From Neelides folsomi (taxonomy: Eukaryota > Arthropoda > Collembola > Neelipleona > Neelidae), in NCBI GenBank assembly GCA_034687125.1, contig JAQGBZ010000193.1:1-64000 (forward strand): a stretch of 64,000 nt of DNA, in the 5' to 3' direction. The notes under the pieces were generated by a model, which worked only from the letters and a program-made list of their open reading frames with translations, ran no database searches and was not told the origin of the DNA. The position numbers were made by a program, and so were the translations under genes. Of the stretch, positions 55,925 through 62,800 are shown one piece after another; the first letter of the stretch is position 1; each line of letters opens with the position of its first letter.

Positions 55925-58448
55925 TCAAGAAATCTCCAAGCTGGACAATTCACTCAGGAGCTCTTTTTCTTTCGAAATTTTCTCTAGCTGATTCTTCTCG
56001 ACCGCTTTTCCAGCTTCAATGTCACTCTTCAGCTTTTTGATTTGGTCCAATTTCTTAAAAACAGGATTGATTGGAATTTTTATACATTGGACCAAAAATG
56101 GCCATGAAATAAAATTTATAGTTTTAAATAGGTATAATGATCATATAAGTAACTATAATAGGATGTTACCTTTTTTAAGTTTTTAATTTTCTTTTCTTTT
56201 TCAACATCTTCTGAGCTGGCCACTTGAGCTGCAGGTTTTCCATGAGTCTTTGGCAAGAGAGCACCTTTATCCGCCTCCCCCCTTTTGGCCCTGACAACAT
56301 ATTTCCCTCCAGCAACTCCAGTTTTTGTTTCTTGAACTAAAATAAAAAGTTTCCAAAATGTATTTGAGAAACTATATTTTATAATTGATTATTCTGATTT
56401 TTTTTTATATGAATTTCATTACGATTTTGAGGCTTCTTTCCAAGTTGAGCAACGAATTTGTCAAGTCTTTCTTGATCTGCAAAGGGTACGGACGGAGATG
56501 AGAGGAAAGGACAAATGCCATAAAGATGTTTTTCAGCTTTCCATTCAAAGCAGACTTTACTCGTGTAATCGTAAATTCTGAATTCATTATCAATTTGCCT
56601 TCTAGGAGCAGTTGAAGCAGTTATGAAATGCACTCCATCTGTAAATTTAATTATTTTAATGGTAAATTCTTTAGTTTCGTCCTTTCGTCTAATGATTTAT
56701 GTTTAGTTATTAAGCTTCAAAATGGTTTAATTCGTCAAATCACCATTAAGCCACGCAAGTTGGGTCGTAAGAGGCGCGCTCATTGTAGCGAGAAGTTTTT
56801 TATGCTTTTTGATTTCCCATATTTCAACATTTCCGTGGGACAAATTCCCGAATCCACACAAAAGAAGAAGGTTTCCTTGAGGGTTGAAGTAAATAGCATT
56901 CCTAGCAGCTATATTCATGTCAAAGATTACTTCGCACCTGAAAATAAAATATACCATTATTACTATATTATTCAATCAATTAATCGTCTCCTAATCTTTC
57001 AACCTTGAATTGAAGATAACTGCTCTGGTTTGTGGCATTTTCCCAGTTATAGCAGCAAATTCCATGGAGTTTGGACTCCATTCGGCAGCATGAATAACGT
57101 TTGAGTCTGACTCTGTTTGAATCATCGCCGTTTCCCCTAAAAATTGAAATAAGAAATCGTAAAATGAATTTAGTTTCATTAATTATTCAATTTTATTTTA
57201 CATTTATGTTAGTTAATTTTGAAATAAAAATAATGCTAAATAAAAAAACAAGTTCAAAACCTTTGGTGTCGAGATAATGCAGCATGGTTTTTCCATAATA
57301 TGATTTTCCTGTCTTGTCAATTTCCGTAGTCGTGATTAAAAGAACAGCGGTTCCTTTATAATTCCACTTCATCTTTACGGTATCAGCTTGAAAGAAACTT
57401 TTTGATGCCACAATTGTGTCGAAATTTGGGTACCGGTAAAGACGAGCAAATGAAGGTGTTCCAGCATTATTCGCTAATATAAGACAAAATTCGAGTTAAA
57501 CATAAATAAATACATTTAAGGTTAATAATAAAGTTTTACAAGTTGTAAGCTATAATTAACAATTAAATGAAACACAACGTTTGTGTGTACTTATGACTTG
57601 TGTATTTTTATTGAATTGAGCTTACAAGGTATGTATAGAAGGACATGAAGAGGAGCAGTTCCAGTTGAAAGTGAAAAGTTACCAACTTTCATAGTTTCAG
57701 GTGTTTTATTCGCAATAACACTGAAGTCAGGTAAATGTGAAAACATTACAATGTTCGAACTGAGCCGAGCGAATTTTTTCTCATCACCAGAAAATTGCAC
57801 TTCTGGAGGTTTGCTGAGCTTCAACGAATAAACACTTTTGATGTTCTTGCCCTCTTTAATCTCCCAAATGGTGAAATTGTCATAGTCTGTAACAGATTTA
57901 AATTAGCTTTAAATGAGATTTTATGCTTATTTAATATAGTTATTTAGTGAGTTTAATATTACAATGATCTAATTCATTAATAAAATATAAGTACTTTGAT
58001 TAGGATTGTCCCATCCAATCAAATAGGATCCATTTGGTGAAAGACTTCCTTCAATGAGTTTATGTCGCAAACTGCCGATAAGCTGACCATCCTTTTTCTC
58101 ATAAATATTGACACTGAAATTAAAGTCCAAAAACAATTAAATACTATCTACATATTACATATTATTCTAATTACATTTTTAACAGAAAATTTCGTTTACC
58201 AAGAATTGTTTCCGATTGCAATGTGCTTCGAAGTAAACGTGGTGACCATAAACCGAGATTCGCCTTCTTCCTTCTTAAACTTCTCCCACTGCTCGAACTT
58301 GGGTGGCCCATTGAGACAATATGTCCCATAGGTTTCCCTAACTGAAAATGAAAATTTGCAATTATTTTATAAAGGTTTATTAAGTTTTTATTAATTAAAC
58401 CGGAAGAGTAAATTGTCACAGACCTCCAAATACATTCGAAGCCGCCAT
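55925..58448 (-). CDS. EIF2A: Eukaryotic translation initiation factor 2A
   Basis: Ten minus-strand exons: 58424-58448, 58200-58341, 57995-58113, 57626-57886, 57261-57473, 57004-57136, 56744-56937, 56423-56638, 56170-56336 and 55925-56053. Phases close to 532 residues (human 585). The WD-type beta-propeller carries family landmarks: YCLNGPPKFEQW, SYLIGWDNPNQ, FARLYRYPNF with SKSFFQADTVKMKWNYKGTA, DKTGKSYYGKTMLHYL, AAEWSPNSMEFAAITGKMP, ARNAIYFNPQGNLLLLCGFG, NLSHGNVEIWEIKKHK and FITASTAPRRQIDNEFRIYD. The C-terminus is a basic coiled coil (KYVVRAKRGEADKGALLPKT, then a Lys/Glu-rich helix). This monomeric factor can deliver initiator tRNA to the 40S subunit independent of GTP, mainly on special mRNAs and under stress. 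The middle linker is shorter than in human. Complete. Confidence 0.95.
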
Positions 58449-58605
58449 CTCTCTCAATTGAGGGTTGATGAGATAGTCTGATGATACTCGTTTAAGACCC
58501 GCCCTAAAATCCTCTTCTCTCTCTGAAAGAGAAATGCGTTTTTGAAAATCATTCCATTTCGAAGACTGTTAATTTATATTAACAATTAAAATATTCCCAT
58601 TTACA
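58449..58605. promoter_or_regulatory. Bidirectional promoter between eIF2A and the mini-ATP6AP2 gene
   Basis: Only 157 bases separate two divergent start codons, so both 5' UTRs and promoters must share this space unless upstream non-coding exons exist. No TATA box is obvious. Inference from layout. Confidence 0.55.
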
Positions 58606-59123
58606 ATGGCTACAACGATTTCCCCGTTTTTTCAGTCTGTGCTGTCCAAAATTTGTGTTCTCATTGCATTTGCTGTTTATGTGGAAGGACAAGCCAAGGA
58701 TGGACCACAATTAACACCAGACGAGGAAGACAGGGTAAGTTGGCGAATTTTTTTGTTTCAATAAAATAATCATTTTTTTATTTATATTTACTAAAAATAT
58801 ATAGAAATATGATATCATATTTATAATAGATTAAATACAACGGGGCGTTACCAATAAGTGAGGATTATGCAGTCATTTTCAATATCCTCCTTTGGTTTGG
58901 AATTGGATTCCTTCTGACCGTCATTTCAATCTGTGGTAAATTAAATATTAGATTTACAGAAAAATTACTATTTTATGCAAATGAGTTGTGGACTTGGATC
59001 TTTCAATTATAATTATTTGACCAATGATTTACTTTTATAGTCGCAATTGCTTCAATGGATCCAGGAAGAGATTCTCTCATTTACCGAGTCACCTCTGCAC
59101 AGCGGTTCAAGAAGGAGAATTGA
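58606..59123 (+). CDS. Miniature ATP6AP2 (prorenin receptor)-like protein
   Basis: Exons 58606-58734, 58830-58935 and 59041-59123; phases close to 105 residues. Residues about 13-29 are a signal peptide (SKICVLIAFAVYVEG), then a short acidic lumenal stretch (KDGPQLTPDEEDR). The rest matches the C-terminal end of ATP6AP2: YAVIFNILLWFGIGFLLTVI for the membrane helix, and ASMDPGRDSLIYRVTSAQRF for the tail, where human has NMDPGYDSIIYRMTNQK. Human ATP6AP2 is about 350 residues; the large ectodomain and furin site are absent here. Its membrane end lies inside the c-ring of the V-ATPase. The protein ends KKEN, a canonical KKXX ER-retrieval motif. It has introns, so it is not a retrocopy, and there is no room upstream for missing exons. 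Likely role by family: V-ATPase Vo assembly in the ER; unproven. Confidence 0.85.
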
Positions 59124-59897
59124 AATAATGGAGATATCCTCTGTATGAATCATTTATTTTTTGTGATAGTCGTTCACGTATCTCAATTAGATTTTATTGT
59201 ATTTTAAAGTATATTAAAAATGTGCAAATTTTTAATTCAAGTCAATAAGTTTGTAAAATGTTAGGTTTTTCGAACATTCTATTCTTTAACGTTATTTGGT
59301 TAAAATTTATAATTATGGGGGTGGATGTTAAATATCATATTATATAAATGAATTTGACTATTAATCAATTTCATCTATAACCGCGTAATAAATTACAAGA
59401 GTCATCAATTATAAATTGTTTATTTTCTTATAAAAATTTCTCATTTCTTAAAGTCGTTCAAAAATATCGCATCTTGTCAAAGTAAGCTGTAGGTACTAAA
59501 TTACAAAGTAACTTTTTGCATTATTTAATGTCATTTCTCCTTCCAGAAAGTTATATTATAATATGTAATATATATTATTATTTATAGCGCACATAATATC
59601 AATTAAGTTCATTTTCATTTTAAATACTCAAATAGATTATACTTAAATACATACATGTATGCGTAATGGTTTCACGTTTTGATCACCGGAGAAAGTAAAG
59701 AGAAGAATTGGAAGACTTACAATTAGTTAATAAAAATGTAAATAGAAATATTCATTAGAGTCGAAGGAAGCATGTAGGAAGAAATTAATAATACGTTTTC
59801 ACAATATTTAAAAAAATATTAGAGAAACAATCTTTATAAGATCTAGAGTCAAAAATACTTTCTGGGAACTAACTTAAATAGGAGATATCATGGTTTA
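59124..59897. other. Gap between the mini-ATP6AP2 gene and the structural protein gene
   Basis: Convergent 3' flanks, AT-rich, with 3' UTR-like sequence. No exon, RNA gene or repeat with definable ends. Confidence 0.45.
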
Positions 59898-62800
59898 ATG
59901 AGCATATGCAGCATAGGCACCGGGACCAGCGTAATGGGCATATTGGAGAGGAGAGGCGTATTTAGCAACAACTGGAGTTGCAACGTGTTTCACAGCTGGA
60001 ACTGCGACTGGGACTCGAGCGACGGCTTGAATGGCGTGTTTAAAGACAGTTGGTTGGTTAACAGCAACACGGTGGAATTTCGTGGCTGGTTCTTGAACTT
60101 CGACATCTTGGATGGTTTCAATTGGCCGAGTCACAACAATTCTAAAATAGAAAACAATAAATAATGTTATTACCTTATTACTCAATCACTATATTTGTAT
60201 TCCAAATAATTAATTTTTAATATTAAATACCTTCTAGTGGTGATTCTCTCTCCTCCTTGAAGTGAAAGATCTCCAAGAGCATCAGCAACTTGAAGGACTG
60301 AAGCGGAGTCAGCGGGCCTTCCATCCTCAGTGAGGATTTCAGTAACGGTTCCTCCTTTGGCAGTGAGGAGATTGATCAAACGCTGTTGAAGCTCAGCGGG
60401 CATGTCAGGGCTGATGACACGGCCTTGTGGCAATCCCTGTGGCTGTTGTTGTTGTGGCTGTTGCTGTTGTTGCTGTTCTTGTTGTGGCTGTTGTTCTTGT
60501 GGCTGTTGGGGTTGTTGTGGCTGTTGGGGTTGTTCTTGACCTTGGGTGGAAGCTTCAATCACTTCAGTATCTTCATTGGATCTTTGAGCTGGAGCTGGGG
60601 ATGGTTGTTGCTGTTGGGGTTGGGCTGATTGTGGTTGAGCGGTTCTTCCAGCCACGCGTCCTCCGACTCTTCCTGCAGCATCTGGAGTGAATCGTCCAGC
60701 AGCTCTCATTTGAGCGAACAAGGTTTGACCTTCTCCATCGAGGATTTGACGAGATGCTCCATATCGGACAACAGGGGCATGATGAACAAAGTTGGTTGGG
60801 GTCAACACTGCTGGTCCCTATTAGGATAATTTCATTCATTAGCGTAAAAGTGAAACTTAATGAATTAAACTATAAAAGCATCTGCTACACATCATTGTAC
60901 ATTTCTCCCAAGGAAATTGGCGAGATCCTTCTGATGAATTGGCAATTATGCAAAGAGTGTCTTATTCAATTCAACAGGAGAAAACAAATGATGAATCAGC
61001 TCAGGTAAATTGTCTTGCTAATGCATTTGCAAAGATATATCTAATGTGCATAGTTAGTACGTGTATAGTTTGAGTGATTAGAATGCAAATCACTTTCCTT
61101 ATCCCGATCCCATCAGGATAAGATAAAATAAACAAAAGGATAAAAAATGGAAATGCTGAGATCCGGACCCTTATCTCTTTACGTCTTCACTCCCAAATCA
61201 TTAGCAAAAGGGAGGTGAAGTGTTAAATGGGGTTAAACAATTTTTTCAGAGTCGAGAGAAAGAGAATGGGAGAATGAATGGGCGATTAGGAAAAACATTA
61301 GGAAATCCTCAAGGAGTTCATCCAACTACTCTCGTCTAAGTAATAGAAAACATCCAATCTAACAATTGTATCAACTTTGTCGTTGACTCCTTCATCTCAC
61401 ACTTTGACACATCCACACACCAACACTCACCACAGACACAAAGAAGAAGGGAGGGATTGAGCTATAAAATCAAACTTGCTCTCTCCTCATAATAAATTTC
61501 TCATGATTTCATGCATTGCATCAGGTAAGGTCTAGATATACCATACAGGTATTATGTGTATTTATCATCGTGATCTCATCATTTATAAATTGATAAAAAG
61601 TGAGGTAATCAGGATGGGAATGGAAAAGGTGTGTTTTATGGTGGAAGTGAGAAACGCAGACCTCCTGCTTATTCTTCATTAATCTACTTAATTTAACAGT
61701 ATTACTCTTTGGTGAATGATTTTCTCCAATCCACACCTCTTTACCTTTTGTTCCTTTGAGATTGGTTGGGTGAGTTCAAGGGTGGCGGATCCCGCTGGTC
61801 GAATGATCACTCGGTGTTCAATGTCATAAAATTCTTTTCTAAGGGCTGGACGACGAACTTTGAGCTTCCTCGTGCTGACGGCGGGTTGAGCGACGTCCAC
61901 AAGCTTTTGGGTAACTCCGTGGGAATAGGCGAGTTTTGTCACTGGAACGTCAGCAACTCCGGCAACCTTTGTGAGCACTGGAGTAGCGGCATATCCAACC
62001 TAAATATAACAACGATCCAAATTGTTTATTGTATTGTTCAAAGTGTTGAGTAATTCGTTAAATTAAAAATCCTATTAGCATTGTAATATCGGTAAATTAA
62101 TTACGTATGGTTGATATTGATGTTGATAGTATTGTTGTTGATGGTAGTGGTTGAGCGGCAAACTTACCTTTTGGTGAACGGCAAGAGCTGGAGCAGCAGC
62201 ATAGGCCAGTCTTTGTGGATGAGCATATGCAACTGGGGCAGCAACCTTTGTAGCGTAGGCTGGAGTAGCGTAGGCTGCAGCGGCATAGGCTGGAGTAGCG
62301 TATGCTGGAGCAGCGTATACTTGGGCAGCGTATGCTGGAGCGGCGTATGACACTGGAGCAGCAACCTTGGCCACAGCTGGAGCAGCGTATCCCAATGGAG
62401 AAGCGTATTGGTATTCGGCTGGGACAGCACGGTGGAATTGTTGCTGGGCTTGCTGTTGTTGTTGGGCTTGGGCTCCTTCAGCTGCATTTCTTCCAGCAGC
62501 TTCTTGGGAATCTTGAGCGTCTTGCTGTTGCTGTTGCTCTTGTTGCTGTTGCTGTTGCTGTTGTTGAAGCTGTTGTTGTTCAGCAGCAAATTCTTGGGCT
62601 GCTTGGTCTGCAGCGGCAGCTTGCTGTTGTTGTTCATCATGTTGCTGTTGTTGTTGTTGTTGCTGGGGCTGTTCTTGTGGTTGGATAGGTTGTTGTGGTT
62701 GAAGTTGGGGGAGCTATTGGGAAAATGGGATTAAACGTTTAATTTCAATGCAAACTTTTAATTCAATTAAACAATAATTTATTTAGCTTTTCGATGAATA

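What the first reader, a model, noticed from the sequence alone, without database searches (positions are those of the whole stretch)
58606..59123. A 105-residue ATP6AP2 reduced to signal peptide, membrane helix and tail
All known full ATP6AP2 proteins carry a large ectodomain that is cut off by furin, leaving a membrane fragment that sits in the V-ATPase c-ring. Here a gene encodes almost exactly that fragment, with its own signal peptide and no ectodomain. It has introns and a promoter, so it is not a retrocopy. This would separate the V-ATPase assembly role from the receptor roles of the ectodomain. It also ends in KKEN, a perfect KKXX ER-retrieval motif.
Basis: partly seen in the sequence, partly recalled or inferred. 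Interest (0 to 1): 0.75.

Follow-up and report, generated by a model that had tools for sequence, protein, structure and literature searches.

The report
V-ATPase accessory protein without its ectodomain
A small animal gene encodes only the membrane stub of a proton-pump helper protein that other animals make as a large precursor and trim with a protease, and the pump's second trimmed helper looks shortened in the same way in this genome.

Summary
At 58606-59123 three exons with canonical splice sites encode 105 residues: signal-peptide-like start, short luminal stalk, one membrane helix, tail ending KKEN. Residues 39-103 are ATP6AP2 (Pfam Renin_r, 83.6 bits). Intron 1 is 95 bp, so no ectodomain fits inside the gene; an eIF2A gene starts head-to-head 157 bp upstream. 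It is the only Renin_r locus found in the 75-Mb assembly, by a search shown to miss things.

New here: the only Ac45/ATP6AP1 locus over cut-off is also short, 248 residues: signal-peptide-like start, second luminal domain, helix, no furin-shed first domain. Both furin-cut V-ATPase proteins thus appear encoded pre-trimmed, while furin-type P domains remain. A mouse construct of the same ATP6AP2 design restored LysoTracker staining to 38%, full length to 119% (PMC3817224), so a natural gene of this design is surprising. Best reading: a working c-ring core subunit and assembly factor without receptor parts. Expression, species and presence in relatives are unverified.

The parts
58606..58734 (+). 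exon 1: residues 1-43, signal-peptide-like start (about 1-28, cleavage inferred after VEG) and acidic start of the luminal stalk
   Evidence: translation and splice sites; hydrophobicity; cleavage site by the -3/-1 rule (recalled), inference
58735..58829 (+). intron 1, 95 bp; too short to hold an ectodomain
   Evidence: GTAAGT...AATAG, phase 0
58830..58935 (+). exon 2: residues 44-78 and first base of 79; juxtamembrane YN...Y..FN..LW segment and most of the membrane helix
   Evidence: Renin_r profile 21-56, 34.1 bits; PDB renin receptor matches
58936..59040 (+). intron 2, 105 bp
   Evidence: GTAAAT...TATAG
59041..59123 (+). exon 3: end of the helix, MDPGxDSxIYRxT segment, tail and TGA stop
   Evidence: Renin_r profile 51-78, 31.3 bits
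59109..59120 (+). C-terminal KKEN, fits the KKXX ER-retrieval motif
   Evidence: translation; function inferred
56500..58448 (-). 5' part (as far as read) of a divergent eIF2A gene, ATG at 58448, 157 bp from the ATP6AP2 ATG; bounds the 5' end
   Evidence: Pfam eIF2A 151.4 bits on an approximate exon join; position

Best explanation
The gene is a real, functional ATP6AP2 orthologue that lost its whole shed ectodomain and has its signal peptide joined directly to the luminal stalk. The signal peptide inserts it as a type I membrane protein; after signal cleavage a 77-residue, 8.6-kDa chain remains, about the size of the furin-cut M8.9 fragment. Its helix would sit in the V0 c-ring core with Ac45 and c'', and KKEN would return unassembled protein to the ER during V0 assembly. 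Because Ac45 in the same genome also seems to lack its furin-shed first domain, the two partners probably shrank together, giving a V0 core that needs no furin trimming. Shown: architecture, homology, gene bounds, short gene models for both. Inferred: expression, c-ring placement, ER retrieval, co-evolution.
For: Renin_r 83.6 bits over residues 39-103. 26 of 56 residues identical to the best PDB renin receptor chain (its numbering agrees with the bovine residues in PMC7414150), including Y294, N295, Y304, F308, N309, L312, W313 and DPG 333-335. In bovine V-ATPase residues 293-313 bind the Ac45 luminal domain and the helix lies in the c-ring core (PMC7414150 passages); the homology here starts at about that segment. 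Mature mass 8634 Da if cleaved after VEG; no RXXR. Intron 1 95 bp; eIF2A head-to-head. Single Renin_r locus. Ac45: one locus over cut-off, 248-aa model, VAS1_LD 29.3 bits at 35-183 and TM 59.2 bits, no RXXR. VMA21, Vma12 and P_proprotein matches over cut-off remain. The processed C-terminal part of human Ac45 complements voa1-mutant yeast (PMC4894975 passages; KKNN was added to Ac45 constructs where indicated), so trimmed Ac45 can work alone.
Against: The mouse CTF, same design, restored LysoTracker staining to 38% against 119% for full length and 14% for the shed part, and the authors conclude the ectodomain is required (PMC3817224); they caution about tag and insertion. K299 (contacts Ac45) and W330 (beside a sterol-like density) of bovine ATP6AP2 are P and A here. 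No transcript evidence. Three scans of viral and prokaryote contigs gave no relative, as expected of collections not meant to hold animals, so conservation of the short form is untested. The genome search is insensitive or the assembly incomplete: PF00137 gave one match, which I read as mitochondrial subunit c, so V-ATPase c and c'' were not seen.
Confidence: 0.62

Rival explanations
1. The short gene is real, but a full-length ATP6AP2, or a separate secreted ectodomain gene, exists elsewhere in the genome and was missed; the stub would then be an accessory paralogue or one half of a gene fission.
For: Identity of the whole protein to human falls to 35% in distant invertebrates (PMC10073018 passages), so an ectodomain is hard to find. 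The genome search missed the Ac45 luminal domain, which the joined model contains, and gave one match for ATP-synthase C.
Against: A full-length paralogue should carry the conserved C-terminal exons; the only Renin_r matches were the two exons of this gene, and the protein search found only its own three exons at E<=10. RENR_N gave no candidate at E<=10.
Confidence: 0.2
2. An isoform or assembly artefact: far-upstream ectodomain exons splice into exon 2 and exon 1 is a minor alternative start, or the assembly lost exons.
For: The acceptor of exon 2 is phase 0 and could take another donor; no homologue of exon 1 is known here. A family scan of the + strand upstream was not done (one search failed).
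Against: The upstream DNA holds a divergent eIF2A gene. No N in the window. The Ac45 gene on another contig is short in the same way. A signal-peptide-like exon 1 arises at 3 of 6391 other AG sites.
Confidence: 0.1
3. A decaying or non-functional remnant of ATP6AP2 that still happens to be open.
For: Ectodomain absent; no transcript data.
Against: Three open exons with canonical splice sites, many family positions kept in helix and tail, and no other ATP6AP2 found to take over an essential role.
Confidence: 0.05

Closest known systems
Furin-generated C-terminal fragment of ATP6AP2 (CTF, M8.9) in mammalian V-ATPase
   Same: Same segment: luminal stalk, helix, cytosolic tail; similar mass (8.6 kDa calculated here, an 8.9-kD protein there, PMC3553411 passages)
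   Different: Here encoded directly behind a signal peptide instead of being cut from a 350-residue precursor
Engineered mouse CTF construct lacking residues 18-275 (PMC3817224)
   Same: Same architecture: signal peptide joined to stalk, helix and tail
   Different: Artificial, C-terminally FLAG-tagged, only partly functional in mouse cells
Full-length ATP6AP2 / (pro)renin receptor of animals, e.g. shrimp LV-RR of 323 residues (PMC9798321 passages)
   Same: C-terminal Renin_r domain, type I topology (inferred here)
   Different: Here no RENR_N ectodomain and no furin-type site
Yeast Voa1 and processed Ac45
   Same: ER-retrieved single-helix V0 assembly proteins; the processed C-terminal part of Ac45 works in yeast; Voa1 ends in KKNN (PMC4894975 passages)
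   Different: Different family; they keep a luminal domain, the short ATP6AP2 has almost none

Membership tests
ATP6AP2 (Pfam Renin_r, PF07850) | C-terminal juxtamembrane, helix and tail domain | tested here: met
   83.6 bits against cut-off 27.8, residues 39-103
ATP6AP2 / (pro)renin receptor, full form | RENR_N ectodomain (PF25294) | tested here: not met
   Only PF07850 found in the protein at E<=1; no room in intron 1; none in the genome at E<=10, (insensitive search)
ATP6AP2 / (pro)renin receptor, full form | furin-type cleavage site | tested here: not met
   No RXXR in the 105 residues
ATP6AP2 | N-terminal signal peptide, type I topology | tested here: inconclusive
   Hydrophobic start and one further hydrophobic region; no signal-peptide or topology predictor was run
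ATP6AP2 | Place inside the V0 c-ring with Ac45 and c'' | not testable with these tools
   Contact segment 293-313 largely kept, K299 and W330 not
ATP6AP1/Ac45 (gene on C277 of this genome) | Second luminal domain and Ac45/VOA1 helix | tested here: met
   VAS1_LD 29.3 bits (cut-off 26.9), Ac45-VOA1_TM 59.2 bits (cut-off 25); C146 and C196 align with human cysteines, (disulfide pair in bovine)
ATP6AP1/Ac45 (gene on C277 of this genome) | First, furin-shed luminal domain | tested here: not met
   VAS1_LD match begins at residue 35, about 15 residues after the probable signal peptide, in a 248-aa model; no RXXR. Exon 1 of the model has no homology support, and the 1.2 kb upstream was read only as ORFs

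The most novel reading that the evidence does not exclude
An animal lineage has removed from its genome the furin-shed ectodomains of both V-ATPase accessory subunits, ATP6AP2 and ATP6AP1, and runs V0 assembly with gene-encoded, pre-trimmed stubs. Ectodomain functions assigned to ATP6AP2 (Wnt/Frizzled adaptor, prorenin binding, ectodomain-dependent pump assembly) would then be dispensable in a whole animal, and loss in one partner would have allowed loss in the other.
Probability: 0.45. Interest if true: 0.78.

Novelty: new variant of a known kind. Interest (0 to 1): 0.6.

Why it matters
ATP6AP2 is essential in the systems tested, and its roles in pump assembly, receptor binding and Wnt signalling are hard to separate because one precursor carries all of them. 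A natural animal with only the membrane stub would separate these roles. It would directly test the mouse-cell conclusion that the ectodomain is indispensable, and the parallel shortening of Ac45 suggests that the two shed domains act together.

Tried and rejected
Ectodomain search by RENR_N found nothing, but I do not treat it as proof of absence: VAS1_LD failed the same way though the joined Ac45 model matches it, and the tool itself warns that nothing rang anywhere, controls included. The idea that furin was lost was rejected: 6 of 6 scored P_proprotein candidates over cut-off on four contigs (the protease domains themselves were not checked). The idea that the V0 assembly pathway was lost was rejected: VMA21 (3 of 7 matches over cut-off) and Vma12 (2 of 2). 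Relatives were sought in viral contigs and prokaryote genome contigs: 9, 274 and 60 pattern matches, none confirmed. Naming the species failed: the rRNA family search errored twice; an 18S start pattern hit two places, but no eukaryote collection was on hand to compare with; the paper search on compact copepod genomes (12 of 89 listed) named no match that I could tie to this assembly. The promoter scan covers bacterial promoters and is not informative here; no tRNA was found in the window with the bacterial setting. No structure prediction was run, because the tool takes proteins read letter for letter from DNA and this one is spliced. Guida 2018 on ATP6AP2 assembly is not held and is known here only from a reference list. 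Paper searches in which a short ATP6AP2 could have turned up: 4 of 4 listed; 9 of 10; 15 of 58; 19 of 19; 1 of 1; 12 of 15; 15 of 44; 2 of 2; 2 of 2; I saw the listings and, for ten papers, an outline, passages or sections, and none of that reports an ectodomain-less ATP6AP2 gene. Most subscription journals are not held.

Full report
Observation. The coordinates given are exact. Three exons, 58606-58734, 58830-58935 and 59041-59123, with GT-AG introns of 95 and 105 bp, encode 105 residues. Pfam finds one family, Renin_r, over residues 39-103 with 83.6 bits (cut-off 27.8); no other appears at E<=1. The eight distinct PDB sequences matched (E from 6.5e-11 to 3e-7) are all named renin receptor or ATP6AP2. 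Against the best one 26 of 56 residues are identical, and 23 of 56 columns are invariant in an alignment of the window stretch with three of those chains.

Is it more than chance? Exons 2 and 3 carry family homology across the intron (34.1 and 31.3 bits apart; 83.6 joined). Exon 1 rests on its own features: ATG, phase-0 GTAAGT donor, hydrophobic start. Of 6391 other AG dinucleotides in the window, 3 have an upstream ATG exon of at least 30 codons with a phase-0 GTRAGT donor and a hydrophobic start within 300 bp, and 49 do so without the hydrophobicity rule (+ positions 58600-59400 were left out; real exons in the window were not removed from the count).

No ectodomain. Full-length animal ATP6AP2 is about 320-350 residues (shrimp 323, PMC9798321 passages; 350, PMC3553411 passages), and one survey reports a fairly constant length in all genomes it analysed, fly and worm included (PMC3354321 passages). 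Here intron 1 is 95 bp, and the upstream side is bounded by a divergent eIF2A gene whose ATG lies 157 bp away. Genome-wide, the Renin_r search returned two matches, both exons of this gene, and a search with the protein itself returned only its own three exons. The RENR_N search returned none at E<=10.

How far can absence be trusted? Only partly. The tool searches exon by exon. It missed the Ac45 luminal domain, which the joined gene model contains. It returned one ATP-synt_C match, which from its reading frames I take to be mitochondrial subunit c (my reading, not a search result), so V-ATPase c and c'' were missed or are not in the assembly. The tool states no completeness for this genome. 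The local gene structure is therefore the stronger evidence.

The partner is short as well. The Ac45/VOA1 helix profile found one locus over cut-off, on contig C277 (three further matches were below cut-off). It gave a four-exon model of 248 residues with introns of 128, 100 and 125 bp. The model matches the second luminal domain (VAS1_LD, 29.3 bits against a cut-off of 26.9, residues 35-183) and the helix (59.2 bits). Its C146 and C196 align with cysteines of human Ac45; the bovine pair forms a disulfide. It has no RXXR. Human Ac45 ends at residue 470 and its N-terminal part of about 250 residues is cut off by furin (PMC4894975 section 10); fly VhaAC45 has a predicted furin site at 185 (PMC8541823 passages). 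Here almost nothing stands between the probable signal peptide and the second domain. The first exon of this model has no homology support of its own. An ATG of an unidentified ORF lies 89 bp away on the opposite strand; its joined ORFs have no family above cut-off, so it bounds the gene less firmly than eIF2A does at the ATP6AP2 locus. Short or uncut Ac45 relatives exist (yeast Voa1; vertebrate ATP6AP1L without a furin site), so this half alone is less unusual.

Mechanism. In bovine V-ATPase the ATP6AP2 helix lies in the c-ring core with Ac45 and c'', residues 293-313 bind the Ac45 luminal domain, and the shed domain is not seen (PMC7414150 passages). The homology of the gene product starts at about that segment. 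Its mature chain, 77 residues and 8634 Da if cleaved after VEG (cleavage inferred), is close to the M8.9 fragment. Lys299, which contacts Ac45, and Trp330, beside a sterol-like density, are replaced by Pro and Ala, so the contacts are not all kept. KKEN fits KKXX; yeast Vma21 needs such a motif for ER retention (PMC13142848 passages), and Voa1 and cleaved Ac45 required a dilysine motif for ER localisation in yeast (PMC4894975 passages). The mammalian ATP6AP2 tail is said to have ER-retention motifs too (PMC3817224 section 22). Signal insertion, ER retrieval and c-ring placement are inferred.

Evidence against a simple stub-is-enough story. Mouse cells lacking ATP6AP2 were given a construct of the same design (residues 18-275 removed); LysoTracker staining was restored to 38%, against 119% for full length and 14% for the shed part (PMC3817224 section 18). 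The authors conclude that the ectodomain is required (abstract) but warn about tag and insertion effects (section 22, part 1). A natural gene of this design is therefore unexpected. Parallel trimming of Ac45 is one way to reconcile the two, and a testable one.

Status of names. The protein belongs to the Renin_r domain family. It does not meet the definition of a full (pro)renin receptor, since ectodomain and furin site were tested and not found. P_proprotein domains, which I take as furin-type convertases (matches on four contigs), VMA21 and Vma12 remain in the genome.

Limits. No transcripts; no relatives in the collections on hand, which are not meant to hold animals; no species name.

Noticed in passing
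L007 3848-4947, minus strand (G000:C277): ATP6AP1/Ac45 gene of the same genome: a 248-aa model without the furin-shed first luminal domain
   Followed up: yes
G000:C60:3909-4212, C60:100838-101198, C132:133921-134118: VMA21 matches over cut-off at three places, two of them more than 95 kb apart on one contig, suggesting more than one VMA21-like gene; one weaker stretch at C60:100838 holds a stop
   Followed up: no
window 59890-60820, minus strand: Next gene downstream encodes a glutamine/proline-rich protein with an A/V/P/Y-rich end that resembles a cuticle protein (impression); its main exon has no Pfam family above cut-off, TFIIA at 19.9 bits being below 36.2
   Followed up: partly
L007 5037-5576, plus strand: Unidentified ORFs head-to-head with Ac45; no Pfam family above cut-off (two ORFs joined by eye)
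   Followed up: partly
G000 whole assembly: ATP-synt_C search returned a single match, so V-ATPase c and c'' were missed by the search or are missing from the assembly
   Followed up: partly
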